NCBI GenBank assembly: GCA_947179295.1
Contig: CAMXAZ010000019.1
Location: forward strand, 1 to 45,850
Direction: 5' to 3'
DNA: 45,850 nt
Source of the DNA: an uncultured Muribaculaceae bacterium
GTDB lineage: Bacteria; Bacteroidota; Bacteroidia; Bacteroidales; Muribaculaceae
The position numbers and the translations under genes were made by a program. Below, one piece after another: positions 31,399 to 45,850 of the stretch (positions within the stretch are counted from its first letter, which is position 1; each line of letters opens with the position of its first letter). The notes beneath the pieces were generated by a model that searched no databases, was not told the origin of the DNA, and saw nothing but the letters and a program-made list of their open reading frames with translations.

Positions 31399-31452
31399 AG
31401 CGGATTGCGGGAGATGGTAGATGAGTTTTGAGTGATTTTGTTTTTCGGATTG

Positions 31453-31484
31453 CAAAATTACTCAGAATCCCGCAGATTGCCAAG
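31453..31484 (-). promoter_or_regulatory. Promoter of the ABC-F gene
   Basis: On the minus strand TAATTTTG (31453-31460) matches the -7 consensus; CTTG (31481-31484), one base from TTTG, lies 20 bp upstream. It places the start codon at 31398. Confidence 0.62.
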
Positions 31485-31575
31485 AGTTTTGTCAGGGAGC
31501 ATGGTTGTGAGGCTGCTGGCACGGAGTGCGCGGCAGGGAAGATGGTGGCGCAGTGACGGAGGGTGCCTGGGGCGT

Positions 31576-32184
31576 TTACCGCATGAAGGGGTGTCCGTGG
31601 GCCGGATCAGGAATGAAGGATTCGTAAGTGCAGTCGTCGTAATAAACCACAATGCCTGTGACTCGTTTGCCTTTTCCGGTTGTGAGCGTGATGGAGTCAT
31701 CGTTGGAGTCGGTCACGGCAGATGAGGAGGGGAATCCTGCTGATGGTCGGGTTGGCGGTTCGGCCGGTTGTTCGGCCGGAGTGGCAAAAGTGAATGTTGT
31801 GTTGGCCTCCGGCGCAGATGGCGTTGCTGCTGATTTTTCTGAAGAATTTTGCATGGGGGTGTCATCGAAGTCTAAGCCAAAGTCAATTTGCTGTGTGACT
31901 GGTGTTTGCTGATGCTCTGGCGTTGAGGGCCGGCTGTTTTGAGGCTCTGAGATTTCAATATTTCCGTTCGTCACCATATTTCCCTCGCCAAACATCAGCC
32001 ATACGATGTTTAGATCGGGGTAGGCGCTGTGGATTTTGCTGATGATTTCGTCGCTCACCTTCTTGTTGCGTCCGGCAAGTAGCTGGCTGCCAGTGGGGCG
32101 AGGGATTCCGCATTCATCTGCAAACTGGGTTATGCTGATCTGACGGCTGTCGAGATAGTGTTTGAGTCTTGAAACGAGGTCCAT
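31576..32184 (-). CDS. XRE-family helix-turn-helix regulator with disordered linker
   Basis: DNA-binding protein with an N-terminal XRE/Cro-type domain (about 1-70): VSRLKHYLDSRQISITQFADECGIPRPTGSQLLAGRNKKVSDEIISKI, where the turn and recognition helix are TQFADECGIPRPTGSQLLAG. The DLNIVWLMFGEG segment that follows is the usual link in Bacteroidales regulators of this type. A 110-residue Pro/Ser/Thr-rich linker without structure leads to a short conserved end, TGIVVYYDDCTYESFIP. There is no signal peptide. It has its own promoter made of two ATTTGC words spaced by 20 bp. It sits where the window turns from GC-balanced to AT-rich, so it may regulate the accessory region or itself. Confidence 0.85.
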   Translation of the reverse strand: MDLVSRLKHYLDSRQISITQFADECGIPRPTGSQLLAGRNKKVSDEIISKIHSAYPDLNIVWLMFGEGNMVTNGNIEISEPQNSRPSTPEHQQTPVTQQIDFGLDFDDTPMQNSSEKSAATPSAPEANTTFTFATPAEQPAEPPTRPSAGFPSSSAVTDSNDDSITLTTGKGKRVTGIVVYYDDCTYESFIPDPAHGHPFMR

Positions 32185-33186
32185 AATGCAAATTCTTTAG
32201 AATTTTGAATTGTAATGCGATTGCAAATGTAATTATATAATTTTGAATATGCAAATTTAAGAATGAAAACCCGAAAATTTGAGAATTGAAATTAGATTAG
32301 TGTGGATTATTAATTGTAAAGTCGATTGCCTTGTGGTGAGTTTGCTATTGTAAATATGGAATTTAAAGCAATGGTTTAGAATTAATTTGTAAAATCCTAT
32401 ATAATCGTGGTGTTATATATGGGTGTGGATTTGAATTTAGTGACGGCCTGTAAGTGGGTGTGGGACGATGTGATATATTAAAGCTTTGATTCGGATTATT
32501 TTTATAATATAGGTGATAATTAATTAGTTATTTTGAATGTTAATGCTTTATAATTTGCAATTGTGATGCGTAGATTTGAAATTCGGACAGATAGCAAATG
32601 TGAATTAGAATTGCAAAAATAGATGATGTAAATATAAATTCAAGAATGTAAATGGCTTGAATTTGCGATTTGAAAATTGAAATCGGGATGTCATAAGTCT
32701 TAATAAATGTAAACGCAAAGAGCGGCAATGCAAATGAGAATCTTGTATTTGGATTGCAAACTTGCATTTGCAATTTAGAATAGCATGTATTTAAGTTTGT
32801 AAACCTAAAATGCTTGATCTATGAACAGATTTTCAAAAATTGACGGCATCCATCTGATGCTCATTGTTATAACAAGTCACAAATATGAAAATACATACTG
32901 ATTAACGATAATTAACCAATGATATTTGCTTTTTATATTCCCAATACATTTATTATATTGCATTATCTATTGATAACACTTCTCAACAAAGCGATATTTG
33001 CGCCGGATTACGATTCAGCCTCGAAATATTGAATTCTCATCCCTATTATTTGTCCGGGTTTTCCACTCTGCTCCTTATACATCCTCTGTCTTGGGCTTCC
33101 TATGGTACAGTGCGTGAGTATTTTGTAATAAGTAACTTTGAGCATTGAAGATTTTAACAAACTTCAGCAATGTTGCTTACTGATTT
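32185..33186. other. AT-rich intergenic region with scattered GCAAAT words
   Basis: About 1 kb without a credible gene. The hexamer GCAAAT or its complement ATTTGC occurs at 32188, 32223, 32251, 32553, 32594, 32661, 32730 and 32766, with related GTAAAT at 32350, 32628 and 32648. Two of these copies form the promoter of the XRE gene. The region from about 32,820 to 33,180 holds no repeats that I see and only a 26-codon ORF at 32821. A possible minus-strand ORF at 32540-32773 is judged spurious. Confidence 0.6.
32224..32255 (-). promoter_or_regulatory. Promoter of the XRE regulator gene
   Basis: On the minus strand TACATTTG (32224-32231) and TTTG (32252-32255) are 20 bp apart, a full consensus. 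The leader is about 35 nt. Confidence 0.75.
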
Positions 33187-33218
33187 TTTGAATTTTCGGA
33201 GTAATTTTAATAAATTTG
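33187..33218 (+). promoter_or_regulatory. Promoter of the TPR/HTH regulator gene
   Basis: TTTG (33187-33190) and TAAATTTG (33211-33218) are spaced by 20 bp, a full consensus. The leader is only about 14 nt. Confidence 0.8.
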
Positions 33219-33237
33219 CACTCTGATAGCTCTCTTA

Positions 33238-34929
33238 ATGATAAAAACGCTCTTAATATCTGCTCTCTCCATTTTGTTCATTGCCTGTAGTCATAGGGGT
33301 AATGTGGTGGATTTTGACTATATCGAGAAGGTGATTTCCGACTCGCCTGAAAAGGCGATCGTGATCCTCGACAGCATCGACCGGAGTTCTCTGACTGAGG
33401 CCGACCGCCATCTGGCCGATCTTCTGTCAATCAAATCTCGTGACAAAGCCTACATCACCCATACTTCAGACAGCCTTGTGCTTGATGTGATGGATTACTA
33501 TTCTTCACACAAGGATGACCGATTATATCCCTTGGCTCTCTATTATGGCGGTCGTGTCTACTCCGATCTTGGCGATTACCCGACAGCTCTTCGACATTTC
33601 CAATCGGCGCTTGATGTCATTCCGGATGATACGGATAATTTGGAATTAAAGGCTGCTGCTTTAAGCCAGACCGGCCGGCTGCTATGCAACATAAGGCTGC
33701 CACTACAGGCTATACCATATTTAGAAAAAGCAATTGAAGCAGGCAAACTGCTCGATGACACTTTCGGGCTGGCCTATGACTACAGTCATCTATACCAGTG
33801 CTTTGCTCATGTCAACGATCTACCATCCGCCCGACGATGCAATGCCGAGGCCATGAAATACTCCGAAGCGTTGCCTGCGATCGAACAGGCTGATATGAAA
33901 ATAGACTTAGCCTTACTGCTGTATCAGGAAAATAAAATAGATTCAGCCTTATATGTTATCAGAGGTTTGCCGGACAGGGTAGACCCATTGCGCAGATGCT
34001 ATGCACTCGCAGTCGCCGCACAGATATACAGAGACGCCGGAGTGCCTGACAGTGCCTATATCTACGCCAGGGAACTGGCTCTGGCGGGAAATGACAATAG
34101 CCGGATAGGATTCAAAATCATGTTTGCGCCGGAGCTTAAAAGCGTAGTGCCCGAAGACACACTCCGTTTTTATCTGCCACAATATAAACAGACAATCGAG
34201 AAATATCTCGCCCAGCATGATGCCAAGGAAACACTCATCCAGAATTCTCTTTATAACTATCAGCTTCATGTGCGCGATAAAGAGAAAGCTGAAACAGCGA
34301 GAAACAGAATGTATTTCCTTGTCTATGCCATATCTGCATTGGCTGCTTTTGTTATTATGGGTCTGCTCTATCTCAGAACGCGTAATTTAAGGCAGATTGT
34401 GCATCTTCAGAAAGCCTTGAATACTATAAAAACATTGAGATACGATCAGGCTGACAATAGCAAATCTTTAGAACCAATGACCTCCCGGACTTCCGCCTGC
34501 TCAGAAACTGAAATTCTGCGCCGACAGATCTTGCATGAGTTTGAGGCGATGGAAAATGCCGATAGCTCCGCATTTTCAGTCCGTCAGGGAATACTTTGCT
34601 CTGAGGCATTCCGCCGGCTGGAGGAAGTCATACGGAAACAGAAGTCCATACCGGATTCTGATGATTTGTGGGATGAACTGGCGATGGCTGTTGAAAAAGA
34701 TTCCCCCGACTTTAAAGTGCGTCTGGCCACTCTTACCAACTGCAAAATGTCAAACGCCGACTTTCAGATAGCATTATTGATCCGCTGCGGGATTTCCCCG
34801 TCAAATATGGCCATCTTGCTGAACCGCACAAAAAGCACAATTTCTTCACGTCGGTCGTCTCTATGCTGCAAAATATTCGGCCCAGGACCAAATATCAAGT
34901 TGCTTGATTCCATAATACGTTATTTATGA
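33238..34929 (+). CDS. Membrane-spanning TPR lipoprotein with C-terminal HTH (putative sensor-regulator)
   Basis: Predicted envelope sensor that controls transcription directly. A lipobox LFIAC puts an acylated cysteine at residue 17. A periplasmic TPR-rich domain follows (about 25-335), with clear units such as YPLALYYGGRVYSDLGDYPTALRHFQSAL and the paired ALSQTGRLLC unit. One membrane segment (359-378, YFLVYAISALAAFVIMGLLYL) is followed by a basic cytoplasmic stretch and a C-terminal helix-turn-helix-like region (about 500-545, SNADFQIALLIRCGISPSNMAILLNRTKSTISSRRSSL). The class is known in Bacteroidota as TPR-containing regulators, sometimes called hybrid sensors, but I know of no assigned ligand. 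It lies just upstream of the propeller-peptide operon and is its best candidate regulator. The N-terminal lipid plus a transmembrane helix is unusual. Confidence 0.75.
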   Translation: MIKTLLISALSILFIACSHRGNVVDFDYIEKVISDSPEKAIVILDSIDRSSLTEADRHLADLLSIKSRDKAYITHTSDSLVLDVMDYYSSHKDDRLYPLALYYGGRVYSDLGDYPTALRHFQSALDVIPDDTDNLELKAAALSQTGRLLCNIRLPLQAIPYLEKAIEAGKLLDDTFGLAYDYSHLYQCFAHVNDLPSARRCNAEAMKYSEALPAIEQADMKIDLALLLYQENKIDSALYVIRGLPDRVDPLRRCYALAVAAQIYRDAGVPDSAYIYARELALAGNDNSRIGFKIMFAPELKSVVPEDTLRFYLPQYKQTIEKYLAQHDAKETLIQNSLYNYQLHVRDKEKAETARNRMYFLVYAISALAAFVIMGLLYLRTRNLRQIVHLQKALNTIKTLRYDQADNSKSLEPMTSRTSACSETEILRRQILHEFEAMENADSSAFSVRQGILCSEAFRRLEEVIRKQKSIPDSDDLWDELAMAVEKDSPDFKVRLATLTNCKMSNADFQIALLIRCGISPSNMAILLNRTKSTISSRRSSLCCKIFGPGPNIKLLDSIIRYL

Positions 34930-34963
34930 GCCTCATGGCTTCCGGTAAATTAAGATTTGCCCG

Positions 34964-35020
34964 GTACGGAAATTGTACGAATTCCCGTACTAAAGTGTAT
35001 TTCCGTACTTTTTCCGTACT
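34964..35020 (+). promoter_or_regulatory. Array of five GTAC sites, candidate activator-binding region
   Basis: GTAC cores at 34964, 34975, 34987, 35005 and 35016 are separated by 11, 12, 18 and 11 bp, about one or near two helical turns. The last two are direct repeats TTTCCGTACT; the first is inverted (GTACGGAAA) relative to them. The array ends 7 bp before the operon's -33 box, the place for an activator. Confidence 0.6.
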
Positions 35021-35026
35021 GATATA

Positions 35027-35059
35027 TTGCAACGCTTCCTGACATAAGCGATAAATTTG
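35027..35059 (+). promoter_or_regulatory. Promoter of the propeller-peptide operon
   Basis: TAAATTTG (35052-35059) is a full -7 match. The -33 box is weak (TTGC at 35027-35030, 21 bp away), as expected for an activator-dependent promoter. Transcription should start near 35065. Confidence 0.6.
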
Positions 35060-35077
35060 CAAACAAAAAATTAGTTT

Positions 35078-35137
35078 ATGAACCGACTCCTTAAATCAAT
35101 CACATTAGCCATCCTCCTTCTCTTTGCAATGGTATAG
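35078..35137 (+). CDS. 19-residue signal-peptide-like ORF at the head of the operon
   Basis: The first ORF after the promoter encodes MNRLLKSITLAILLLFAMV then stops. It has a basic n-region and a hydrophobic core, just like the start of an exported peptide, but nothing after it. It is 20 bp before the first propeller gene. It may be a leader peptide that couples translation, a membrane microprotein, or the remains of a deleted peptide precursor gene. No homology can be judged at this size. Confidence 0.4.
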   Translation: MNRLLKSITLAILLLFAMV

Positions 35138-35157
35138 AAAGTCATTATAATTAACAT

Positions 35158-36216
35158 ATGAGAACGTTTAATTATTGTATAGTACTATTATTTATAATAT
35201 TCAGCAGCTGTGCCGGAGGTGAAAAATCAGGAACCGATGGCAGAACTGATTCTGAGCACCAAGCTTTGACAAGACAGGGCGATTTCAAAACGATTCTTAT
35301 AGATTTGAAAGAAAATACTACAATAGACCAAAATTTGGAGCCTATATCTACGGTTGTGTTTGATGAAAACGCAGAGGAAGTAATTGGAATTCCACAAAAC
35401 ATTAAAGTCAAGGGTGACACGATCTATGCTATAGATTCCTATAAAGCTCCAGGTTTTTACGCTTATCTGAGGAATGGAGAGCAATTGTTCGCATATTGTA
35501 AAGTTGGCAACGGGCCTGAGGAATATTTCAACTTGACGGATATCAATGTAGGGGTAAATACGATTTCTGCATTTGACAATACCGAAGGAACAATAATCAC
35601 GATAGACAAAGCCGGCAACTTTGTGAGCAAAGAAAATGTTGGAAGCAACACATTTGGTGCAATTATTGATAATAATGGTGAATATTGGATTGATTTATCA
35701 AATCAGGAAGATGATTCTGCTAAACTATCATGGAGGCAGGCAAAAGGCACGGAATACTCACAAGTGTTACCTGTACCGGAAACATTGAAAGGGATGAAAA
35801 TAATGCCTCTACAACAATTTCATAGGCTTGAGACAGATGAGTTCACATATCTTCCTGCATTTGAAAATAAGATATATACTCTTGAAAAAGGGAATGCTTA
35901 TTTGAGATATATTCTTGATTTTAAGGATTATTGGCATTCAGAGGCAGATTTAGAAAAATATCGTGGTCCATCTTGGGCTTTACGGATGAAAGAATTTCCG
36001 ATTACAAGATTAATCTGTCAAGAAAATGCCAAATGGTTGATAGCCGGTTTTTACTATAATGGTAAGTTGCACATCTATGTTTATGACAAGATAAAAGGTA
36101 AAGGGCATACATATTACGACAATAAAGAACGGTATTATATACCTATGGATATTTATGAAAATGAGCTGTTCATGCTTATGCGAGACGGCAATTTGGAAAT
36201 ATTGAAAATTGATTAG
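35158..36216 (+). CDS. Six-bladed beta-propeller lipoprotein 1
   Basis: Predicted envelope lipoprotein of the Bacteroidota 6-bladed beta-propeller family. A signal segment ends in lipobox FSSC with the acylated cysteine at 18. The body contains repeated short strands with Asp/Gly-rich turns and the family signature GNGPEEY at 117-123, in the context YLRNGEQLFAYCKVGNGPEEYFNLTDINV. The 352-residue length matches its paralogues downstream. First main gene of the operon, 36 bp before the Trx/DUF1573 gene. Ligand unknown; such folds usually bind small molecules or peptides or build protein scaffolds. Sequence is more AT-rich than core genes of the window. Confidence 0.78.
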   Translation: MRTFNYCIVLLFIIFSSCAGGEKSGTDGRTDSEHQALTRQGDFKTILIDLKENTTIDQNLEPISTVVFDENAEEVIGIPQNIKVKGDTIYAIDSYKAPGFYAYLRNGEQLFAYCKVGNGPEEYFNLTDINVGVNTISAFDNTEGTIITIDKAGNFVSKENVGSNTFGAIIDNNGEYWIDLSNQEDDSAKLSWRQAKGTEYSQVLPVPETLKGMKIMPLQQFHRLETDEFTYLPAFENKIYTLEKGNAYLRYILDFKDYWHSEADLEKYRGPSWALRMKEFPITRLICQENAKWLIAGFYYNGKLHIYVYDKIKGKGHTYYDNKERYYIPMDIYENELFMLMRDGNLEILKID

Positions 36217-36252
36217 AATAATTTGGTCGTTCTTACACACATTTGTTAAGCC

Positions 36253-37125
36253 ATGAAGAAGTCAGTCATCCAGATAATATTGATGTTTCTTGCAAGCATT
36301 ACCTTATGGTCTTGTGCATCTGAAACAGATGCTTATGCCAAATTCGTATCGGAATGGCAGGGACGGGAGATAGTGTTTCCTGATGTAATGACAGATGTTA
36401 TTACAGGAGATACAATTGATCTGTCAGATGCAGATTTTACGATTCTCACATATGTTGACAGTACCGGTTGCACCGGTTGCAAGATGAAGTTACCGATTTG
36501 GAAAGAGTTTTTCAGTTCGTTGGACTCGATTGTCGGAGAGAGGGATTTCAATGCAGTAATTGTTGTCAATGCAAAAGACAACCGCGAATTGACCTATCTT
36601 ATCCAACGCGATGATTATCCTTATCAAGTTGTTAATGATGTAAACGACTCTTTGCAGATACTTAATCAGTTTCCTGACGACATTATGCTCCGTACTTTCC
36701 TCTTGGATCGAAACAATCATGTTGTAGCTATTGGCAACCCCGCTTACAATGTAGGTATTGCAGAATTATACCGAGCCATTATTTCAGGAAGAAAGACATT
36801 CAATAAGGGCGGGACTCAGATGATTACTGTCGATGATTCAAAAAAAGAAATCGGAGAAGTCAGATTGGGAGAAGTTTTAACGGTCAATTATGCGCTTAAG
36901 AATGAAAGTATGGACACCGTGTTTGTCAGAGATGTCATTTCATCATGTCATTGTACGGAAGCTATCATTTCAGATAGCGTCATTCCTCCAAATGATACTT
37001 TGCCGATCCAGATTAAATTCCATGAGGATTCTATCTCAGGAGATTTTGTCCGCAATGTCTATGTCTACTATCAAGGATTTGAAAACCCGACAATTTTGGA
37101 AATTTCCGGCATTGTCATAAAATAA
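36253..37125 (+). CDS. Thioredoxin-like/DUF1573 lipoprotein
   Basis: Two-domain envelope lipoprotein. The lipobox LWSC puts an acylated cysteine at 21. Residues about 40-180 look like a thioredoxin-type fold with a C73-TG-C76 pair in YVDSTGCTGCKMKLPIW, a plausible redox or metal-binding CxxC motif. The C-terminal part (about 195-290) is a DUF1573 Ig-like domain with the SSCHCTEA segment that replaces the usual SCGCT motif. It lies between the first propeller gene and the NVEALA peptide gene, 33 bp from the latter. This suggests, as inference, that it acts on the cysteines of that peptide or of a partner. Partner and redox direction are unknown. Confidence 0.78.
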   Translation: MKKSVIQIILMFLASITLWSCASETDAYAKFVSEWQGREIVFPDVMTDVITGDTIDLSDADFTILTYVDSTGCTGCKMKLPIWKEFFSSLDSIVGERDFNAVIVVNAKDNRELTYLIQRDDYPYQVVNDVNDSLQILNQFPDDIMLRTFLLDRNNHVVAIGNPAYNVGIAELYRAIISGRKTFNKGGTQMITVDDSKKEIGEVRLGEVLTVNYALKNESMDTVFVRDVISSCHCTEAIISDSVIPPNDTLPIQIKFHEDSISGDFVRNVYVYYQGFENPTILEISGIVIK

Positions 37126-37158
37126 ACATTTATTAATCATCTAAATCAATTTTTTATC

Positions 37159-37413
37159 ATGAAAAAAGTCGTTTTCGTGTTTCTCATTGCAGTGGTGACT
37201 GTATGTTGTGCCTTGGAAGCTGTCAATGAATCGTCCAAAACTGACTTAAGTTGTCTTACACTTGCAAATGTTGAGGCTCTTTCAAATCAGGAAGATACGT
37301 CAGGCTACAGCAATACGGGGCCAGCAGAAGAAAAAAGATGCTATGGCGGCGGTCATAGGATGGTGTGTCGCTGTATAAACTCTCATCCATGCTCAGGTAC
37401 AGATTGTTATTAA
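37159..37413 (+). CDS. NVEALA-family secreted peptide precursor, cysteine-rich
   Basis: An 84-residue precursor. An N-terminal hydrophobic signal (about 1-18, MKKVVFVFLIAVVTVCC) is followed by a short propeptide region. The family motif appears as LANVEALSNQED (residues 35-46), with Ser in place of the last Ala. The C-terminal 24 residues have five cysteines (C61, C70, C72, C78, C83) and many Gly, Arg and His, ending TDCY. No lanthipeptide, radical-SAM or YcaO enzyme is near. NVEALA proteins are known only as small Bacteroidota exported proteins without clear function. Neighbours are a Trx-like lipoprotein upstream and a run of propeller lipoproteins downstream, so it probably is the product on which the operon acts. 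Confidence 0.82.
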   Translation: MKKVVFVFLIAVVTVCCALEAVNESSKTDLSCLTLANVEALSNQEDTSGYSNTGPAEEKRCYGGGHRMVCRCINSHPCSGTDCY

Positions 37414-37526
37414 CATGTTTGGATGAAGAAGTCGGTATAGTCTTTCGGTTTCAGCTCGCTCAATAATACTTAAGTAATATTATTTGATATGAGTCATTCC
37501 CCCAATTTAATAAATAAACTTCCGAA

Positions 37527-38642
37527 ATGAACCATTTATTCATTAGAATATTATTTACGACATATTTTATCGGATGCGTATTGTCATGCTCAAAGGATAA
37601 TAATGTACGAGACACAGATGTGCCACAGTCCGTTATTAATATCGATATGTGCATGGATTCTTATGACAGTTTATGTCGTGATCATCATGTTTCATTCGTA
37701 ATTTTGAAAGAGGATGATGAAACGATGTTTATAGATATAGATAAAGTGAGGTTTTTCAATGGGAATTACTATATTCTCGACAGAAGTTCGGCTCGGAAAC
37801 TCGTGTCATTTACCTCCGATGGATCACCTATGGGAAGCTACGGGAGACAGGGCAATGGACCTGGAGAATACGTTTTCCCATGGGATATGGATGTAGATTC
37901 AACCGGTGTGTATGTATTGGATACAAATAACCGAAAAGTAATCCGTTATTCCCACGATGGTACATTCATCAGTGAATCAAAGCTCAAGTTTCTCGCAGAT
38001 GCTTTCAAACGCCTTCGGAATGGAAATTTCATATTTAATATCACTCCTGACGGGAAAGCATCACCAAGCCTCTGTATTACTGACCCATCAGGACATATAC
38101 AGACTTCTTTCTGCTATTATGAAGACGGATATGTTGGTGGTTGTACGACAAACAATGTGTTACGTGAAACCTCTGATGGTATATTATATTACAGAAGCCC
38201 GTTAGATACTTTAATAAAAATGGATAAAAACGGCAATATAACCGGCCGATTAATTTTTGATTTCATGGGAAAGGGAATATCTCAGATAGCAAAAAAAGAT
38301 TTTCTGGCATTTCGGCGCAATGAAGAAGACAAATCTTATCTGAGGCTTGTAGACACGCCATTTCCCCTGTCGGGCAGCCTATTGATAGGGCTGGTGGAAG
38401 ATGAGAGCTCGCAGTACACAATTATTTGTGATCCGGTAAATAATATGTGTGGAAGCCGTAAGTTTACAAGCAATTCTTCTGTATATGACATCATCGAGCC
38501 TCTGACATCTGTAGGCGACTCTGTCGTAGTAAGTCTTATGAATGAGGAGCTGGCACATCGTTGTCGTGATTATGCGACTCTTCCGGACTCGATAAAAGAT
38601 TCTCTTAAATCAGGAGCTCAGATATTGGTTTTAAATAAGTAA
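37527..38642 (+). CDS. Six-bladed beta-propeller lipoprotein 2
   Basis: Second paralogue (371 residues). The lipobox VLSC puts an acylated cysteine at 21. The family signature GNGPGEY sits at 109-115, in YGRQGNGPGEYVFPWDMDVD, followed by strand-turn units such as GVYVLDTNNRKVIRYSHDG, a classic blade. It starts 113 bp after the NVEALA gene, the largest gap in the operon, which contains a TACTTAAGTA palindrome (about 37467-37476) but no promoter. It may be a ligand-binding or scaffold protein on the periplasmic or outer face of the envelope. Confidence 0.78.
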   Translation: MNHLFIRILFTTYFIGCVLSCSKDNNVRDTDVPQSVINIDMCMDSYDSLCRDHHVSFVILKEDDETMFIDIDKVRFFNGNYYILDRSSARKLVSFTSDGSPMGSYGRQGNGPGEYVFPWDMDVDSTGVYVLDTNNRKVIRYSHDGTFISESKLKFLADAFKRLRNGNFIFNITPDGKASPSLCITDPSGHIQTSFCYYEDGYVGGCTTNNVLRETSDGILYYRSPLDTLIKMDKNGNITGRLIFDFMGKGISQIAKKDFLAFRRNEEDKSYLRLVDTPFPLSGSLLIGLVEDESSQYTIICDPVNNMCGSRKFTSNSSVYDIIEPLTSVGDSVVVSLMNEELAHRCRDYATLPDSIKDSLKSGAQILVLNK

Positions 38643-38694
38643 CATTAAAGTATAAGTTGAAAGAATAGCAAGTTACATAAATCGATTAAATCTT

Positions 38695-39846
38695 ATGTAT
38701 AGGAGATCTATAATACCCGTAGCCATTTTTACTGCACTTTTATCTTGTTCGCCCAAAGATGCTGAACAGGCAGAATCACTGTTTCCGACTGCCAACGTTA
38801 CTGCCGGTGAAAAAGTAGATGCCTTGTCCGCTATATTCCCGGACTATCGCCTGATACCTCTTGAAACGAATGATTCCTGTCTGATTGACAGTAAGAGAAT
38901 AAAGATACTCAAACGCGACTCCTGCTATTATGTGCAATCGTACAACGATATACTAAAGTTTGACGGAGACGGAAAATTTGTGGAAAAGCTATCGAAAGTC
39001 GGAAATGCCAGAGATGAATATCCGATAATTCTTGACTTTGACATTGCTGATATTAACGGCAGGCCGGAGATAATGATTGCAGCCAACAAGACTATCAAAC
39101 GATATGATGCCGATACTTTTGGCTTTATCGGAGACATAAAAGGAGAAGAATACATAAACCAGCTCCATTATGTCAATGACAGCACTATTCTGACGGTTTC
39201 TCCGGATGATGTTGTGTTTAAAGTGATGACGCTTGGTGGGAAGACCAGAAAATCGTTTATGGAAAAGGATTTGGCCAATGCAGGACAGAAACTGGTGCAG
39301 TTCCGCCGGTTGGGCGATGGAAGGATAGCATATCAGCTTGACGATACCAACAATGCTGTCGTGTATGATGAAAAATCTGATTCATTTTCATATTCAACGC
39401 TCATTCCGGCTCCCGGAAAGGTGCTGACGGTAGATGACAACCGTGAATATTTCGAAAGATACGGTTTCAGGGAGCAGCCAAAGAAGATCTCATCCGAATT
39501 CATTTGTATATCTTCTTTCCAGACAAATGGTGATGCCTATGTGATCACTTGTTTCCATCCGGACGCGGTAAAAACAATGACCGCAGGAAACAAGGATGAA
39601 TCTGTAGCATATGTCTATTCTGACAACGGTATAGGAAATTTGGAAAACGATATTCAGACAAGCGATATGCTTTTTCTGTCGACACTGACATGCTGCGACA
39701 GCGACGATGGTTTCCTCTTCATGATCCCCGGTGAAAGTTTCGCCGATGAATCGATGGCCGATCAGAATCCGGTCCTGTTGGAAGCCGGCAGAATTTGTTA
39801 TCATGATCAGGTTACAAACCGCCCGGCAGGCACAACAGAAAGATAA
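38695..39846 (+). CDS. Six-bladed beta-propeller lipoprotein 3 (divergent)
   Basis: Third paralogue (383 residues), lipobox ALLSC with acylated cysteine at 18. The signature is degenerate: GNARDEY (103-109) instead of GxGPGEY, so the Gly-Pro turn of the conserved loop is lost while Glu-Tyr is kept. Blades such as KTIKRYDADTFGFIGD can still be seen. It is the longest member. The gene follows the second paralogue by 52 bp and leaves only 3 bp to the next, so translation may be coupled. The change in the loop suggests altered ligand binding rather than decay, because the reading frame is intact. Confidence 0.74.
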   Translation: MYRRSIIPVAIFTALLSCSPKDAEQAESLFPTANVTAGEKVDALSAIFPDYRLIPLETNDSCLIDSKRIKILKRDSCYYVQSYNDILKFDGDGKFVEKLSKVGNARDEYPIILDFDIADINGRPEIMIAANKTIKRYDADTFGFIGDIKGEEYINQLHYVNDSTILTVSPDDVVFKVMTLGGKTRKSFMEKDLANAGQKLVQFRRLGDGRIAYQLDDTNNAVVYDEKSDSFSYSTLIPAPGKVLTVDDNREYFERYGFREQPKKISSEFICISSFQTNGDAYVITCFHPDAVKTMTAGNKDESVAYVYSDNGIGNLENDIQTSDMLFLSTLTCCDSDDGFLFMIPGESFADESMADQNPVLLEAGRICYHDQVTNRPAGTTER

Positions 39847-39849
39847 GCC

Positions 39850-40965
39850 ATGAAAGCAATATCAATCCGGACTGTTGTAATGTTTATTTTCATCTTGATT
39901 CTTCAGTCATGTAAGAATCAAGGTGCAGTAGACAACGGTGGTGCTCCAGTGGTCAATCTTGATCCCGGCAATAAGGAATTGTCACATGAAAATGTGATGG
40001 AGATCATTGACTGGGTCGAAATCAAGGCGGATAGCTCGCTGTTCATAGGAAATGCGGCTAAAGTTGAGGCCTTTGGATCTGAATATTATATAATGGATGA
40101 CCGAAATCAGAAGTGTATTCTCAGATATACCTCGGAAGGGAAACTAAAAAATAAGATTGGGCGTTACGGCGATGGTCCGGGAGAGTATTCAACAATCATT
40201 GATTTCTCAATTGATGAAGCTAATAGCCGGATTTTCATTCTCTCAGGAGAATCATCCATTTACATATATTCGACAGACGGAGTTTTTGAACGCAAAGTAA
40301 AGCTTGCTGATGATATTATAAGCAAAGTGTCATGTAATCCGAAAGGATTGATGGCTTCATCCGGCTATTCATCAATAAAAATCAAAACTGACGGATTTCT
40401 GCTTTCTGAATTTGATGACAACTTTAAGACTATCGGTCAGTGGATTCAGTTTACTGAACCTATGCGTCCTCCGTTTGTTCCTTTCGGAGCGGATTGTCTT
40501 GTTACGCATGGAGACCGTACTTACTATTTTGACGACATCAATCTTAATGTTGTTGTCTATGACTGTAATTCCAACAAGCTTGATTCTCTCATGTCATTCA
40601 GTATGAACAACAGAATGCCGAAAGAGATTTTCAACGATAACATGAGATTTATTACAGAACAGACAAAATACAACTGGGTGAAAGATTTTGTGATGACAGA
40701 TTCCAACGTGATAGTCGGATATATCTATGGCGGCAATTATTCAATCACCATAATTGACAGGATGGGTAACATTGTGACCTCCGGCATATACCACGGACCA
40801 TTCCCCCAATGTTATGCAGAAGAAGATGATACAATAATATCTCCTGTTCCTGTTGACATATACCTGAATTATTGGGAAAATCAAAGTGGAATTATAAAGC
40901 CTGCATCTGATATCACGGACGATACAAACCTGCTGATAATGAAATGGAAACTCAGAAAATTATGA
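39850..40965 (+). CDS. Six-bladed beta-propeller lipoprotein 4
   Basis: Fourth paralogue (371 residues), lipobox LQSC with acylated cysteine at 21. The canonical signature GDGPGEY sits at 107-113, followed by STIIDFSIDEANSRIFILSG, a typical blade. Its start is 3 bp after the previous stop and its stop is 18 bp before the next start. The size and order of elements match the other paralogues, so the set arose by tandem duplication followed by strong divergence. The function is not known. Confidence 0.78.
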   Translation: MKAISIRTVVMFIFILILQSCKNQGAVDNGGAPVVNLDPGNKELSHENVMEIIDWVEIKADSSLFIGNAAKVEAFGSEYYIMDDRNQKCILRYTSEGKLKNKIGRYGDGPGEYSTIIDFSIDEANSRIFILSGESSIYIYSTDGVFERKVKLADDIISKVSCNPKGLMASSGYSSIKIKTDGFLLSEFDDNFKTIGQWIQFTEPMRPPFVPFGADCLVTHGDRTYYFDDINLNVVVYDCNSNKLDSLMSFSMNNRMPKEIFNDNMRFITEQTKYNWVKDFVMTDSNVIVGYIYGGNYSITIIDRMGNIVTSGIYHGPFPQCYAEEDDTIISPVPVDIYLNYWENQSGIIKPASDITDDTNLLIMKWKLRKL

Positions 40966-40983
40966 ACAATAAAAAGATTTCAG

Positions 40984-42039
40984 ATGAAAATTACATTACA
41001 ATCATATCTCTTGATAATTTTTCTTGCACTATTGACCTCATGCAGCAGGTCCTTGAGTGAAAAATCCGATGATATTCTCACCATTGACCTGACTCAGGAA
41101 CTGACATCTATAACTCCAATTGTAGTCAGAGAAATCAGTCTGTCAACAGGAGATGATCCTATCGGACATATGTCGAAGTTTGTGCCTGCAAAAGATGGGT
41201 TCTTCATTATGGATGCCTTCAGAAATACCATATGGAAATTCAGTGAAACAGGAGAAAAAATAGGTAAGCTGCATAGTATCGGCAATGGACCGGGGGAATA
41301 TAGCTGTGTGAGTGAGATTGACGTGTATCCTAACGGGGATTTGGCCGTATTTGACTTCAAGACTGGCAAGATTCATAGATATGACGGATTTCTCAATTTT
41401 GTTTCAAGCATAGAAATACCGGGAAGAGCCTGTGGTTTCTCTATTGGTAGCGACACATCTTATTTCGTGAACAAGGCTGGTGACAAGCATGAACTCAATA
41501 TAAATCTTGGGCATTTTAACACTGCTGACGGAGCCATTGAGCCTATTATAAAATCAAAACACAAACATGAGAACCTCGCCTTTGGCTCAGGGAATACACA
41601 TTTTTGGAGATCTGGAAACGATGTAATTTTCTATGACAGATTCACCCCCGATTTCTATTTGATAAAAAATGATTCCGTAAGCCCTTATTTTTCAATTCTA
41701 TCAGATGATATTCCGGATAGTGATGTTGTGAAAGCTCTGGTTAATGCGACAATGGACCATCAATACTCATTTTCAGGTATTGATGCTGCTACGATCATTG
41801 ACGTTCTGTATGCTTTCAAATGCGATGATATACTTTTGTTCGGGCTTCATTCAACTCCATCACGACACATTTGCTATCGGTTCAGTGACAATCAGATGTT
41901 TTCGCTCAATATGAACACACCTCCCTTCTATGGCGCTTTGCAAGGTGCTATCGGTGTGTATCAGGACTGTTTTGTGACCAATAAACAGCCTCTTGATGAC
42001 GGGAATCTATCTATTCTACTTTACAAATTCAATAATTGA
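40984..42039 (+). CDS. Six-bladed beta-propeller lipoprotein 5
   Basis: Fifth paralogue (351 residues), lipobox LTSC with acylated cysteine at 20. The signature GNGPGEY is at 100-106 in KLHSIGNGPGEYSCVSEIDV, followed by a blade GDLAVFDFKTGKIHRYDG. Lacks the extended N-terminal spacer of the first members, with the mature protein beginning SRSLSEKSDD. It lies 18 bp after paralogue 4 and 51 bp before paralogue 6. It has no catalytic motif that I can see. Confidence 0.78.
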   Translation: MKITLQSYLLIIFLALLTSCSRSLSEKSDDILTIDLTQELTSITPIVVREISLSTGDDPIGHMSKFVPAKDGFFIMDAFRNTIWKFSETGEKIGKLHSIGNGPGEYSCVSEIDVYPNGDLAVFDFKTGKIHRYDGFLNFVSSIEIPGRACGFSIGSDTSYFVNKAGDKHELNINLGHFNTADGAIEPIIKSKHKHENLAFGSGNTHFWRSGNDVIFYDRFTPDFYLIKNDSVSPYFSILSDDIPDSDVVKALVNATMDHQYSFSGIDAATIIDVLYAFKCDDILLFGLHSTPSRHICYRFSDNQMFSLNMNTPPFYGALQGAIGVYQDCFVTNKQPLDDGNLSILLYKFNN

Positions 42040-42090
42040 AAATATGGCAGTTTGATTTAAATCGGTCATAGAATCATATAATACTTACAA

Positions 42091-43230
42091 ATGAAGAATA
42101 TATTAAAATTAGTGGCCATTATTTGCTCCATGCTAATAAGCTCTTGTGCCAATACAAATAAAACTGATGCCGAAAAAGGGATTGATGTGATTAGCATAAA
42201 TAAATCCGGCCGATTCACATCCGATACATTGGTGGAATCAGTCACGTATTTGGGGTTGAAACCATTAGATGATTGTGAAATTTCTGGAATTGACAAAATA
42301 GTTCGTGTTGACAGTCTGTATGTAATTGGTGATTTCCGGCGAGGAATTATATGCGCATACGATTCTGAGAGCGGAAATCCAGAATTCATTATAAACAATA
42401 TCGGCCAGGGACCCGGTGAATATTCCGAATTGAGTTGCTTCTGTTGTGATAAATCTCGGATATACGTTGTTGATAACAGACGTCAGCAGATGTTGGCCTA
42501 TGATGCCTTGTCCGGTAAATTTATTGAATCTAAAAGAATGCCTATTATCCCGGATGATGTTGAGTCACTGGATAATGGCGGTTTTCTGTTTGTTACCGTG
42601 CCCCTTGGCTCCAGGCGAAAGTTGCCAAATTCAAATCACAGGGTTCACATATCAGACAAAGACCTGAATATTGTGGACAATTTATTCGAGTATAAAGATG
42701 ATGAGTTTGATCCTATTGGCCAGCGTTATTACTTGACGAAGAATAATAACAAGATTGTGTTCGGATCTCTTATGTTTGACGGTTATACGGTAATGGATGA
42801 TCGTGACCCATCAAAATATCATCAAGTCAAAATTGATTTTAAGAACGGACTGCAAGGGAAAAGTGATATTGATATGCGAGATGTCAAAAACTACGATCAT
42901 CTTACATTGCCTCCATTCATCAGTGGGAACAATGCCATAATATCGTACACTCTTGGCGATGGTTACATAGAGTATGGGCTGTGGAATAAAGATGTAAATG
43001 GAATACTTCCAATGCCATCAGACAATATTTCAAAGGCTATAATGCCTGTTGTTGGTGTTGATGGCGACAAATTTATCGGCTATTATGATTCATATGACAG
43101 ATATAAATCAGCCGTAGATCATGGATTTGCAAAAGCGTCTGAATCGGTGGAAGATATTTTGAAATCTGAAGGTAGTGCACTTGTAATATATAAGATGCGG
43201 CAACAAGTACCCTCTAATACCGAAAATTGA
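42091..43230 (+). CDS. Six-bladed beta-propeller lipoprotein 6
   Basis: Sixth paralogue (379 residues), lipobox ISSC with acylated cysteine at 19. The signature GQGPGEY is at 105-111 and is followed by SELSCFCCDKSRIYVVDN, which has three closely spaced cysteines (C115, C118 and its neighbour) that the other members lack. These could form a disulfide or bind a metal. The blade RIYVVDNRRQQMLAYDALSG is typical. It ends 84 bp before paralogue 7. Confidence 0.76.
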   Translation: MKNILKLVAIICSMLISSCANTNKTDAEKGIDVISINKSGRFTSDTLVESVTYLGLKPLDDCEISGIDKIVRVDSLYVIGDFRRGIICAYDSESGNPEFIINNIGQGPGEYSELSCFCCDKSRIYVVDNRRQQMLAYDALSGKFIESKRMPIIPDDVESLDNGGFLFVTVPLGSRRKLPNSNHRVHISDKDLNIVDNLFEYKDDEFDPIGQRYYLTKNNNKIVFGSLMFDGYTVMDDRDPSKYHQVKIDFKNGLQGKSDIDMRDVKNYDHLTLPPFISGNNAIISYTLGDGYIEYGLWNKDVNGILPMPSDNISKAIMPVVGVDGDKFIGYYDSYDRYKSAVDHGFAKASESVEDILKSEGSALVIYKMRQQVPSNTEN

Positions 43231-43314
43231 TTGAGCAGCCACCTCTACGCACCGATATTTATCAGGATGTCGCCAACTGAAATTCTATTTTAATTCAAAT
43301 ACGTGTTATTCGAC

Positions 43315-44388
43315 ATGAAGATCTCTTTTAATATTGTAATTCTGACTATTTGTTTTGTACTATCTGGATGTACACCTGAAGATCAGGCAACAACGATTTC
43401 ATTCGACAACCGGATCTCATTTTCTGAGTTCCCTGCCGTTGTAAGTCTCGATTCAGGTACTATTATCGATACAAAAACTATTGGAAATCTACAATTCCGC
43501 GTAATTGATTCTCTAATGGTCATAGCAACGGCTGAAAGAGAAAATTCATGGAAAGTCAGAAGTATTCCGGGAGATTCCACTTTGTTAGAGTTTATATCTA
43601 TAGGCAGTGGACCGGATGAATTCGTCTCCTCTCCTCTGATATCTCAGGCTTCTTTTTTTAATGGTGATGGAAATATATACATACTTCTACCTGATAATTA
43701 TCGGCAGCAACTTCGAAAAATTGATCTTTCAAAGTCAATTGATTCAGGACAAATGGAATCAGATGTAGAAAATAATCCTCGTATTAATAATTTTTCTGTT
43801 TATAGTAACTTCTCAGACACCAATACCCGAATATTTGTTTCGGTTAATCCATCCGAAGGGTCTATAGAACGAACAATCTTAAAAGACGGGTCGGAACTGT
43901 CTTTAAACAGCATACAGCATCTTAATCAATATAAAGTGCCTGCACCTGATAAACTTGGGCTACTTATGCCCAACATTATCTTCAATTGTGATAAGAACCG
44001 TATTGTTGAAGTATTAGAACTATATCCACAATTTAACATATATTCTCTTGATGATAACTTTTCAGTGACAGTCATGCCTGAAGGTAAGATAGATAGTTAT
44101 AAGCGATATATCGACAACGAAACAGCTGAAAATAAAGAGCTGATTTACAATGGAGTAAACGGATATGAGAAATTTTTCGTCATCAATAAGATTAATGGTG
44201 AAAAATCTGAACTATGGTTCTTTAATTGGGACGGTATGCCCTTATTGGACATAAAACTTCCTGAATTGGCTACTTCTTTTGACATAGATTTCCGGAATCA
44301 TACACTATATACATTAAATTTTAAAAACGACATATTTAAAAAATATGATTTAAAGGATATCTTAGAATCATCGGGTGTATCTCAATGA
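43315..44388 (+). CDS. Six-bladed beta-propeller lipoprotein 7 (divergent)
   Basis: Seventh paralogue. The start is the ATG at 43315 (MKISFNIVILTICFVLSGC) rather than the in-frame GTG at 43303, as it gives a clean signal sequence. The product is 357 residues, with lipobox LSGC and the acylated cysteine at 19. The signature is altered to GSGPDEF at 97-103, with Asp and Phe in place of Gly and Tyr. It is the most divergent copy together with paralogue 3 and is the last propeller before the signal peptidase gene (28-bp gap). Confidence 0.72.
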   Translation: MKISFNIVILTICFVLSGCTPEDQATTISFDNRISFSEFPAVVSLDSGTIIDTKTIGNLQFRVIDSLMVIATAERENSWKVRSIPGDSTLLEFISIGSGPDEFVSSPLISQASFFNGDGNIYILLPDNYRQQLRKIDLSKSIDSGQMESDVENNPRINNFSVYSNFSDTNTRIFVSVNPSEGSIERTILKDGSELSLNSIQHLNQYKVPAPDKLGLLMPNIIFNCDKNRIVEVLELYPQFNIYSLDDNFSVTVMPEGKIDSYKRYIDNETAENKELIYNGVNGYEKFFVINKINGEKSELWFFNWDGMPLLDIKLPELATSFDIDFRNHTLYTLNFKNDIFKKYDLKDILESSGVSQ

Positions 44389-44416
44389 TTGAAAGATACA
44401 GAAACACAGATTATAT

Positions 44417-45298
44417 ATGCTTGGGTTAAGCAAGTTCATCATGTACATGATCATGGCCGCGGTGATCGGGGTAGGGCTTTACTGGCTGATTCAGATAACC
44501 ACAGCCTGTTCATTCCACACTCCTTCGGGTTCAATGTCGCCGACATTGTTGCCCGATGAGAGTGGGTTGGTGAACAAGTGGAAAATGGGTGCGCGGATTT
44601 TTAATATTTTCGATGCCGCCGAAGGGAAGTCTTATGAGATAAGGCGGCTTCCGGGCTACGGTCAGTTGGAGCGAGGCGATGTAATCGTATTCAATTACCC
44701 GTATCTTGACTCCGACCGTAAGCGCGACAGCATTGCCATGAACCTCGCTACATACTATTGCAAGCGGGCTGTAGCCGTGGCAGGCGACACTCTGGAAATC
44801 CGCAATTGCTTCTACCATGTCAGAGGATGCCGCGACACTCTTGGTGTGGTCTCGGAGCAGGAGGCCTTGCAACGATATGTCAGTGGGTTCGCGCGTGAAA
44901 ATCCCGACCAGCACACATGGCCATCCTGGATGCGTTGCTGCCCGCGTGATTCAGTTGTCGGCTGGACGGTAAGAGACATGGGGCCGTTCCTGATTCCGGG
45001 CAAGGGGCAGTCTGTAGAGTTGGATTATAAAAATTGGCTGCTCTACCGGCGGTATATCGAATGGGAAACGAAATCCAGATTAAAATGGCAAGATTCTACT
45101 GCATTTATTAATGATAAGCCGATAAAAAGTTATATCTTTACAGAAAATTACTGCTTCGCTGCCGGAGACCACGTAATCGACTCTAAAGACTCGCGCTATT
45201 TTGGGCTTGTGCCTGAGAAATTCATAGTCGGCACAGCCGGAATCCGCTGGAAATCACATGTTCTTAACCGTATGTTCAAAGCTATCAATAAACATTGA
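44417..45298 (+). CDS. S26-family signal peptidase (LepB-like)
   Basis: Membrane-anchored serine-lysine signal peptidase of family S26. One N-terminal membrane segment (about 8-29) is followed by the active-site motif with the nucleophile S39 (PSGSMSPTL) and the general-base lysine K116 in YCKRAVAVAGD. The C-terminal GDHVIDSKDSRYFGLVP is the conserved box E. All catalytic residues are present. At 293 residues it carries an insert between the two halves of the catalytic domain (about 131-205, with CRDTLGVVSEQEALQRYVSG and paired cysteines), as in other Bacteroidota members. Its place at the end of the operon suggests a dedicated processing role, but it could simply be a housekeeping copy. Its codon use is partly GC-rich, unlike the propeller genes. 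Confidence 0.88.
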   Translation: MLGLSKFIMYMIMAAVIGVGLYWLIQITTACSFHTPSGSMSPTLLPDESGLVNKWKMGARIFNIFDAAEGKSYEIRRLPGYGQLERGDVIVFNYPYLDSDRKRDSIAMNLATYYCKRAVAVAGDTLEIRNCFYHVRGCRDTLGVVSEQEALQRYVSGFARENPDQHTWPSWMRCCPRDSVVGWTVRDMGPFLIPGKGQSVELDYKNWLLYRRYIEWETKSRLKWQDSTAFINDKPIKSYIFTENYCFAAGDHVIDSKDSRYFGLVPEKFIVGTAGIRWKSHVLNRMFKAINKH

Positions 45299-45303
45299 CT
45301 ACC

Positions 45304-45850
45304 ATGAAATATATCCCTGCCATACTTCTCTTATTGGCACTCCTCACATCCTGTTCATCCACAGAAACGGATAAAAAACATGAGGCAGATGAAACCGGGA
45401 CTGCCACGGCCGAGACCGACCGTATAGCCGAAGTCACCGTCATGGAGCTGCAGCCTACGGTGTTCAACCACGAGATCGTAAGCAACGGACGTATTTCAGC
45501 CCGTGAGAAAGTTGATGTGAATTTCCGGTCGCCCGGACTCATCGCCGCCATATATGTGCGTAACGGACAGCGCGTCGCCAAGGGGCAGCGCATAGCCACA
45601 CTTGACACCTATAAACTCGACAACCAGCTTGAGAAAGAGCAGGGGGCAGTAGCTTCAGCCACGCTTGAGATGCAGGATGTGCTCATCGGTCAGGGCTACG
45701 ACCCGGACCGATTTGAAAAAGTGCCCGACGATGTAATGCGGCTCGCCCGTCTGCGCAGCGGTCTCCAACAGGCTGAACTTAGCCTCGCAGCAACCCGCAA
45801 GGACCTTGAAGACGCCACCCTCATCGCACCGGTCAGCGGCGTCATCGCCA
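45304..45850 (+). CDS. RND efflux membrane fusion protein (HlyD/AcrA type), partial
   Basis: Start of a periplasmic adaptor of an RND-type efflux pump, cut by the window end (182 residues visible). The lipobox LTSC puts an acylated cysteine at 17 (signal MKYIPAILLLLALLTSC). The beta-barrel/lipoyl parts are recognisable: VSNGRISAREKVDVNFRSPG, then IAAIYVRNGQRVAKGQRIATLD, the typical lipoyl half, then a helical hairpin and the return segment ATLIAPVSGVI. It begins 5 bp after the signal peptidase stop, so the two are probably translated from one message. Its base composition is like that of core genes. Confidence 0.88.
   Translation, partial: MKYIPAILLLLALLTSCSSTETDKKHEADETGTATAETDRIAEVTVMELQPTVFNHEIVSNGRISAREKVDVNFRSPGLIAAIYVRNGQRVAKGQRIATLDTYKLDNQLEKEQGAVASATLEMQDVLIGQGYDPDRFEKVPDDVMRLARLRSGLQQAELSLAATRKDLEDATLIAPVSGVIA

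What the first reader, a model, noticed from the sequence alone, without database searches (positions are those of the whole stretch)
33238..45298. Candidate undescribed peptide system: TPR/HTH sensor, NVEALA peptide, Trx/DUF1573 lipoprotein, seven propeller lipoproteins and a signal peptidase
The sequence shows a one-directional cluster with small gaps (3-113 bp) and no terminator: a membrane-spanning regulator, a promoter with a repeat array, a peptide precursor with five C-terminal cysteines, a CxxC lipoprotein, seven lipoproteins sharing the GxGPGEY loop, and an S26 peptidase. Families are known separately; I know of no established function for the set. Inference: the peptide is the product, the Trx-like protein handles its cysteines, the peptidase trims it and the propellers bind or display it.
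Basis: partly seen in the sequence, partly recalled or inferred. Interest (0 to 1): 0.87.

Follow-up and report, generated by a model that had tools for sequence, protein, structure and literature searches.

The report
Shuffling peptide and propeller gene pairs
Gut bacteria of the order Bacteroidales carry small secreted peptides with a shared front end and swappable cysteine-rich tails, each tail tending to travel with its own propeller-shaped lipoprotein, which looks like an undescribed weapon-and-shield or signal-and-receptor system.

Summary
The cluster is real and belongs to a system found in Muribaculaceae, Parabacteroides, Bacteroides and Tannerellaceae genomes. Its core is a cassette: an NVEALA gene followed directly by a six-bladed-propeller lipoprotein gene (108 of 126 NVEALA genes scored). 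The precursor has a conserved leader ending in an A-x-[A/S/T] site and a hypervariable tail, usually with an even number of cysteines. Between genomes, tail similarity tracks the neighbouring propeller (r=0.80 in an independent set) while the leader of the same gene does not (r=-0.02). Between the window and Duncaniella muris the homology breakpoint lies in the NVEALA codons: leaders unrelated, tail DNA identical, propeller 97%. Recurrent partners are a Trx/DUF1573 lipoprotein, a membrane regulator, S26 peptidase, transglutaminase-like lipoprotein, Wzy_C protein and an MFP-RND pump. Most other window propellers have no peptide; relatives of three are paired with other tails elsewhere. Most likely a polymorphic secreted-peptide system with propellers as cognate immunity proteins; signalling with propeller receptors is the main rival. 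No function was tested and structure prediction could not be run.

The parts
33238..34929 (+). membrane regulator: periplasmic TPR part, one transmembrane segment, C-terminal HTH; full-length homologue of the BT3442 family
   Evidence: NF053779 37.9 bits, below its cut-off of 940; orthologue in D. muris L093
34963..35020 (+). array of four TTTCCGTACT-type repeats (three direct, one inverted), candidate operator of the regulator
   Evidence: 6 in the window with up to 1 mismatch, 2.06 expected; similar repeats after the regulator in L097 and D. muris, variant ones in L094
35080..35139 (+). 19-codon remnant of a small secreted gene that follows the regulator in D. muris and other TPR loci
   Evidence: read from the sequence
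35158..36216 (+). propeller lipoprotein 1 (PF17170), no NVEALA gene before it
36253..37125 (+). Trx-like (CxxC) and DUF1573 (CxC) lipoprotein
37159..37287 (+). NVEALA gene, leader part, ending at LANVEALS; homology to D. muris begins at these codons
37288..37413 (+). NVEALA gene, tail part: five cysteines, DNA identical in D. muris
37527..38642 (+). propeller lipoprotein 2, presumed cognate of the tail
38695..39846 (+). propeller lipoprotein 3, unpaired; nearest relatives elsewhere also unpaired
39850..40965 (+). propeller lipoprotein 4, unpaired; only fragments in D. muris
40984..42039 (+). propeller lipoprotein 5, unpaired here; nearest relative (L067) follows an NVEALA gene
42091..43230 (+). 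propeller lipoprotein 6, unpaired here; relatives L069 and L092 follow NVEALA genes with one tail type
43303..44388 (+). propeller-like lipoprotein 7, unpaired here; nearest relative (L098) follows an NVEALA gene
44417..45298 (+). S26 signal peptidase with Ser and Lys motifs
45304..45849 (+). HlyD-type membrane-fusion protein, cut by the contig end; MFP-RND genes end several related loci

Best explanation
A polymorphic secreted-peptide system. SHOWN by sequence: NVEALA precursors share a membrane-targeting leader ending in N-[V/I]-E-A-L-[A/S/T]-x-x-E and carry variable tails, usually with an even number of cysteines; between genomes the tail co-varies with the propeller encoded directly downstream and the leader does not; one leader/tail exchange with its breakpoint in the NVEALA codons is seen; unpaired propellers are common; regulator, Trx/DUF1573, S26, transglutaminase-like, Wzy_C and MFP/RND genes recur, often in one order. 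INFERRED: Sec exports the precursor, which stays anchored by its leader; the Trx/DUF1573 lipoprotein sets the disulfides; S26 cuts after A-x-A; the MFP/RND pump releases the tail; the tail acts on neighbouring, related bacteria; the cognate propeller binds the tail and protects the producer, and orphan propellers protect against tails made by others. In Parabacteroides and Bacteroides a second peptide class with a conserved tail, beside the winged-helix regulator, would be the inducing signal.
For: Adjacency: 108 of 126 scored NVEALA genes have a propeller directly downstream. Pairing: between-genome tail-propeller r=0.543 (51 pairs, 12 genomes) and 0.80 (49 other pairs, 23 genomes), at the permutation floor; leader-propeller 0.069 and -0.016. 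Exchange: tail 126/126 bases identical, 25 bp of the leader homologous, propeller 2 97%, against 86.5-94% for three upstream genes. Orphans: 64 of 166 full-length propellers are unpaired; relatives of window propellers 5, 6, 7 are paired with other tails; 4 of 12 propeller-positive family genomes have no NVEALA hit. Site: -1 is A98 S11 T6 V1 G1 of 117, +3 is E in 108. Two peptide classes. The regulator is a homologue of BT_3442, which opens a B. thetaiotaomicron cluster of putative pore-forming proteins (passages of PMC2954219). A secreted antibacterial protein with its immunity gene downstream, and orphan immunity genes, are known in B. fragilis (passages of PMC8406203).
Against: No killing, binding or expression data. 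Within genomes the leader also correlates with the propeller (r=0.508, p=0.0002), as young duplicates would give. Rank correlation over the 52 set-1 pairs is weak (0.05 tail, 0.12 leader): the signal comes from the minority of recognisably similar tails. Tails are mildly acidic (median net charge -2), unlike many cationic bacteriocins (recalled). The window tail has 5 cysteines. Linkage of tail and propeller plus recombination at the NVEALA codons could give part of the pattern without specific binding. A 2012 survey had found no beta-propeller among immunity proteins (passage of PMC3482391). S26, transglutaminase-like, Wzy_C and MFP/RND genes are each missing from most of the 71 loci, partly through contig ends. 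Some alike tails have weakly alike propellers (L075 against the window: tail 0.34, propeller 0.10).
Confidence: 0.5

Rival explanations
1. Peptide signalling: tails are pheromones or kin tags, propellers are their surface or periplasmic receptors, and the membrane regulator reads the bound state; unpaired propellers listen to others.
For: A membrane-spanning regulator lies in many loci; a conserved-tail peptide stands next to the winged-helix regulator; tail and propeller co-vary, as ligand and receptor would; tails are not cationic.
Against: Extreme tail diversity, up to 24 copies per genome and unpaired propeller arrays are more usual for weapons and immunity; no direct link between propeller and regulator was found.
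Confidence: 0.25
2. Propellers are dedicated folding or maturation partners of each tail (chaperone, scaffold for the disulfides), not immunity proteins or receptors.
For: One propeller directly downstream of most precursors; co-variation; the Trx lipoprotein sits in the same loci.
Against: 64 of 166 full-length propellers have no peptide before them, and 4 of 12 propeller-positive family genomes have no NVEALA hit.
Confidence: 0.1
3. Linkage only: tail and propeller move together because recombination falls at the NVEALA codons, and they do not recognise each other; the propellers serve another purpose such as nutrient binding.
For: Tail and propeller are neighbours and the leader is the more distant part, so linkage alone predicts the same direction of correlation; the one breakpoint seen lies at the NVEALA codons.
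Against: Pairing holds across genera at r=0.80, although many loci have several propellers that could be mismatched.
Confidence: 0.1

Closest known systems
Class II bacteriocin regulons with double-glycine leaders (recalled, for example the plantaricin and Blp loci)
   Same: conserved leader with variable short tails, several precursors per locus, a conserved peptide beside a regulator, partner genes directly downstream
   Different: leader ends L-[A/S/T], not G-G; partner is a beta-propeller lipoprotein; S26, transglutaminase-like, Wzy_C and MFP/RND genes recur instead of an evident C39 ABC exporter
Polymorphic toxin and immunity systems (PMC3482391, passages seen)
   Same: constant N-terminus, exchangeable C-terminus followed by a partner gene, unpaired partner genes
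   Different: tails are short (32-86 aa in 114 of 126), no known toxin domain, and that survey found no propeller among immunity proteins
Fab1/RFab1 of Bacteroides fragilis (PMC8406203, start of abstract and passages seen)
   Same: secreted, protease-activated antibacterial protein with its immunity gene directly downstream, orphan immunity genes
   Different: activated by fragipain, a cysteine protease; RFab1 has no recognizable domains according to the authors; the word propeller does not occur in that paper
BfUbb locus of Bacteroides fragilis (PMC5705921, section 9 and passages seen)
   Same: a small secreted antagonistic protein encoded beside variable beta-propeller genes, one of them truncated
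   Different: 27-aa signal sequence, ubiquitin fold, authors infer no immunity protein; whether those propellers are PF17170 was not tested
BT_3442-BT_3433 cluster of B. thetaiotaomicron (PMC2954219, passages seen)
   Same: first gene is the same kind of TPR regulator, next to a small gene
   Different: later genes encode a MACPF protein and other putative pore-forming proteins, not NVEALA and propeller pairs

Membership tests
NVEALA (PF14055) | match over the curated cut-off | tested here: met
   34.6 bits, cut-off 27
DUF5128 six-bladed propeller (PF17170) | match over the curated cut-off for each of the seven | tested here: inconclusive
   met for propellers 1-6 (59-95 bits); propeller 7 has no Pfam hit but hhalign 96.6% over its N-terminal half
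BT3442 family (NF053779) | score over the equivalog cut-off | tested here: not met
   37.9 bits against 940, though aligned over the full length
Class II bacteriocin locus | double-glycine leader | tested here: not met
   position -2 is L in 111 and -1 is A in 98 of 117
Class II bacteriocin locus | C39 peptidase ABC exporter | not tested
   not among the recurrent neighbours that were identified, but C39 was not searched for as such
Class II bacteriocin locus | killing by the mature peptide | not testable with these tools
   needs a bench assay
Polymorphic toxin system | constant N-terminus with exchangeable C-terminus | tested here: met
   leader/tail breakpoint in one pair of genomes, tail families that cross genera
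Polymorphic toxin system | cognate immunity gene directly downstream | tested here: inconclusive
   position met in 108 of 126 and co-variation found; protection not tested
Polymorphic toxin system | C-terminus is a recognisable toxin domain | tested here: not met
   no family other than NVEALA matches the window precursor in Pfam; NCBIfam gives two chance-level hits
Peptide pheromone and receptor system | added peptide alters transcription | not testable with these tools
   needs a bench assay

The most novel reading that the evidence does not exclude
An undescribed recognition system of Bacteroidales in which propeller lipoproteins are interchangeable, sequence-matched partners (immunity proteins or receptors) of secreted disulfide peptides; diversity arises by recombination at the codons of the NVEALA processing motif, so that tail and propeller move between genera as one module while the leader stays native, and the mature peptide leaves through a dedicated MFP/RND pump.
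Probability: 0.4. Interest if true: 0.88.

Novelty: new variant of a known kind. Interest (0 to 1): 0.78.

Why it matters
Antagonism among Bacteroidales helps to shape the gut community, and few diffusible weapons with matching immunity genes are known there (recalled). Here is a family found in 23 of 38 Parabacteroides genomes, with up to 24 copies in one, in which the partner can be read from gene order. If the reading holds, it gives functions to PF14055 and PF17170, makes propellers immunity or receptor proteins for peptides, and offers many natural cognate pairs for direct tests.

Tried and rejected
Anti-phage defence: a PADLOC scan of seven window proteins gave one weak restriction-enzyme match (E 0.0048). 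Solved relatives: the small secreted gene had none at E up to 1; propeller 2 matches NHL-type propellers and one exported protein, which speaks for the fold only; the Trx profile matches a StoA thioredoxin and one other. Whether the BfUbb locus of B. fragilis is an NVEALA locus could not be tested: a ubiquitin-family search of 393 genomes of the order gave four hits, in open frames of 397-1399 residues, none of BfUbb size.

Literature, nine searches of the open library: NVEALA in 0 papers; '6-bladed beta-propeller' with Bacteroid 7; DUF5128, DUF4934, DUF3244, BT3442, BF3164, DUF1573 6; PF14055, PF17170, PF16288, BT0662, BT0664 6, of which five are malaria or enzyme papers where the string PF14055 means something else to judge from titles; bacteriocin, propeller and immunity 3; BfUbb 15; orphan immunity 4; Parabacteroides leader peptides 0; Duncaniella bacteriocin 19, six listed. 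None of the listings or passages that I saw describes this set. The library lacks most subscription papers and preprints.

Limits: genes in the fetched loci were called by a simple longest-ORF script and families assigned with profiles built here, so counts carry error. Three of 129 precursors had no motif and were dropped; nine of 138 lay in duplicate loci. A few precursors (for example L094, L095, L128) were cut at a wrong motif. One search kept only precursors with A at -3, so that position shows nothing. The repeat patterns counted were chosen after seeing the sequences. Not done: structure prediction, complex modelling, search for C39 exporters, test of S26 specificity.
Full report
WHERE IT IS. 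The window is a whole contig of a 2.85 Mb genome. A scan of named genomes with the Trx/DUF1573 alignment found the nearest relative in Duncaniella muris DSM 103720 (L093, 96% identical protein), and 25466-34411 of the window matches that genome at 90% DNA identity. The tool counts the same genome (G236, contig of the same length) as of the window's genus, so the window is a Duncaniella (family Muribaculaceae, recalled).

OBSERVATION. Gaps between 35158 and 45298 are 36, 33, 113, 52, 3, 18, 51, 72 and 28 bp; the regulator is separated by 228 bp that hold a repeat array. The exact GxGPGEY loop is in four of seven propellers. Propeller 7 has no Pfam match but matches the propeller profile by hhalign at 96.6% over its N-terminal half. 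An HlyD-type membrane-fusion gene begins 5 bp after the peptidase.

CO-OCCURRENCE. PF14055 is patchy: 8 of 149 genomes drawn across the order, 8 of 119 of the family sample, 23 of 38 Parabacteroides genomes with up to 24 copies. Neighbourhoods were fetched in two ways. Set 1: 40 stretches around NVEALA matches plus the window; one place (G053, in an open frame of 568 aa) and the places on G201:C78 and G201:C32 were not fetched as stretches. Set 2: 41 loci found with the Trx/DUF1573 protein. In set 1, 40 of 41 loci hold a propeller and 29 the Trx protein; in set 2, 41 of 41 hold a propeller and 35 an NVEALA gene. The six without one (L102, L121, L122, L125, L126, L131) have the match within about 2.3 kb of a contig end or lie on contigs under 5 kb, so some may be cut; L125 keeps regulator and propeller with no NVEALA match between. 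Five loci occur in both sets and were dropped from set 1 for pooled counts. Of 71 non-redundant NVEALA loci: propeller 70, Trx 59, winged-helix regulator profile 27 (in four of these, L080, L084, L087 and L088, the hit is a response regulator or its relative), transglutaminase-like lipoprotein 24, S26 22, Wzy_C protein 21, membrane-fusion protein 13, RND pump 11, TPR regulator 6, small secreted gene 4. A full Parabacteroides locus (L113) reads: regulator (divergent), NVEALA, propeller, Trx, NVEALA, propeller, transglutaminase-like, S26, Wzy_C, MFP, RND. Base rate: all 6 PF17170 matches of the window's genome and all 5 of D. muris lie in this cluster, while 3 of 4 DUF1573 matches of the window's genome lie elsewhere. 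In the 119-genome family sample the 8 NVEALA-positive genomes are all among the 12 propeller-positive ones; by hand the hypergeometric chance is about 6e-10, which treats genomes as independent.

THE CASSETTE. Of 138 NVEALA matches nine lay in duplicate loci and three lacked a recognisable motif; of the 126 scored, 108 have a propeller directly downstream on the same strand (47 of 51 in set 1, 61 of 75 in set 2). In 117 precursors, kept because they have A at -3, the residue before the presumed cut is A 98, S 11, T 6, V 1, G 1, and E stands at +3 in 108; the site lies a median of 24 residues after the hydrophobic segment, farther than in ordinary signal peptides (recalled), which suggests an anchored precursor and a separate cut. 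Tails have an even number of cysteines in 102 of 126; the window tail, with five, is one of 24 exceptions. In an alignment of 16 Trx/DUF1573 proteins the lipobox Cys and both Cys of CxxC are invariant and a CxC of the DUF1573 part is kept in at least 90%.

COGNATE PAIRING. Similarity matrices of tails, leaders and downstream propellers were compared, with labels permuted within genomes. Set 1 without D. muris (51 pairs, 12 genomes), between genomes: tail-propeller r=0.543 (p=0.0002), leader-propeller 0.069 (p=0.06), tail-leader 0.017. Within genomes both correlate with the propeller (tail 0.864, leader 0.508), as recent duplicates would give; over all pairs 0.662 and 0.359. Set 2 without D. 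muris and the loci shared with set 1 (49 pairs, 23 genomes), between genomes: tail-propeller 0.80 (p=0.0005, the floor), leader-propeller -0.016. All 101 pairs, between genomes: 0.746 against 0.111 (the latter p=0.54 within-genome, 0.0025 on full permutation). Pairs were left out if no propeller lay downstream, the tail was under 20 residues, the propeller was 250 residues or shorter, or the propeller was already used. Spearman correlations over 52 set-1 pairs were weak (0.05 tail, 0.12 leader): the signal comes from the minority of recognisably similar tails. Tail families cross genera, for example the CPNGC family in Parabacteroides, Bacteroides and Tannerellaceae genomes.

ONE EXCHANGE. Between the window and D. 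muris only 25 bp of the leader align, the codons of LANVEALS; the tail is identical over 126 bases, propeller 2 is 97% identical and propellers 5-7 are 97-98% (for propeller 7 only 237 bp could be compared), against 86.5, 91.4 and 94.2% for three upstream genes, 77 and 70% for parts of the regulator and 95.7% for the Trx gene. Propeller 1 and, but for 30 bp, propeller 3 have no match in the D. muris stretch; propeller 4 survives there as fragments at two places; D. muris has instead another NVEALA gene, a Wzy_C protein and a transglutaminase-like lipoprotein. The cassette is thus less divergent than its surroundings, as expected after recent transfer.

UNPAIRED PROPELLERS. Of 166 full-length non-redundant propellers 102 directly follow an NVEALA gene; some of the other 64 may have lost theirs to a contig end or a missed call. 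The window has one peptide and seven propellers. The nearest relatives outside Duncaniella of propellers 5, 6 and 7 (L067; L069 and L092; L098) follow NVEALA genes with other tails; those of propeller 3 are unpaired; propellers 1 and 4 have only distant relatives. Four family genomes have PF17170 matches without an NVEALA match, one of them (G216) a single weak hit. This is the pattern of orphan immunity genes, but orphan receptors would look the same.

REGULATION. Three kinds of regulator alternate: the TPR-HTH protein (window, D. muris and four other loci), a membrane protein with a C-terminal winged helix (Trans_reg_C at or near cut-off in two of three scanned) and, in a few loci, a kinase with a response regulator. 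In TPR loci a small secreted gene follows the regulator; the window keeps only 19 codons at that place. The same regulator type opens a B. thetaiotaomicron cluster with a MACPF protein (PMC2954219, passages). TTTCCGTACT repeats follow the regulator gene in the window (four with up to one mismatch in 58 bp), L097 (three) and D. muris (one); L094 has TTCCGCTC repeats there. In winged-helix loci the 28 precursors next to the regulator have more alike tails (mean similarity 0.276) and less alike leaders (0.267) than the 36 other precursors of such loci (0.115 and 0.392). Five of the 28 are plainly of the variable kind, second in a tandem; without them the tails score 0.349, and without the response-regulator loci the other 30 score 0.118 and 0.491. 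This is what one would expect if one peptide signals and the others act.

MECHANISM. My best reading is antagonism with propeller immunity (0.5), with signalling second (0.25). Shown are the cassette, the co-variation, one exchange event and the recurrent partners. Processing, export, target and protection are inferred. Linkage is a partial alternative to recognition, and only binding or protection assays can settle it. No structure was predicted because the queue was full at all six attempts.

KNOWN OR NEW. No paper in the searched library contains NVEALA, and the other searches showed no description of the set. It works most like a class II bacteriocin regulon or a miniature polymorphic toxin system, but leader type, propeller partner and processing and export genes differ, so it is filed as a new variant and not as a member of either.

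Noticed in passing
PMC5705921 (B. fragilis 638R ubb region): The secreted antagonistic protein BfUbb is encoded next to variable beta-propeller genes, one truncated, with a 52-bp element 61-67 bp upstream of propeller genes; that locus may be related to the cassettes here.
   Followed up: partly
PMC10434189 (B. thetaiotaomicron BT0662 and BT0664): An O-antigen ligase family gene and a 6-bladed propeller gene lie two apart and are both listed in an iron-dependent expression table; possibly a related locus in a model strain.
   Followed up: no
L093:12887-13063 and L093:14901-15086: Two 5' fragments of propeller 4 in D. muris, on either side of the NVEALA-propeller 2 cassette; possible recombination scars.
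   Followed up: partly
L075:108-13234: Eleven propeller ORFs (at least one partial) with a single NVEALA gene, the largest array seen.
   Followed up: no
genomes G201, G264, G509: Large NVEALA expansions (14, 13 and 24 matches); in G201 and G264 many are stand-alone cassettes and several lie near contig ends.
   Followed up: no
L094, L096, L097: Public MAG records titled Staphylococcus, Clostridium and Lachnospiraceae carry these Bacteroidales loci; the titles look wrong.
   Followed up: no
window 33238-34929 against L093:7728-9398: The TPR regulator is 96-98% identical over its first 100 alignment columns and 35-76% after column 150, as if its sensing and DNA-binding parts diversify.
   Followed up: partly
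L061:8652-9611: The Trx and DUF1573 parts, one gene elsewhere, lie in two separate ORFs; split or frameshifted.
   Followed up: no
L117, L123, L124, L128: In Bacteroides MAGs two NVEALA genes stand in tandem before one propeller, one with the conserved tail and one variable.
   Followed up: no
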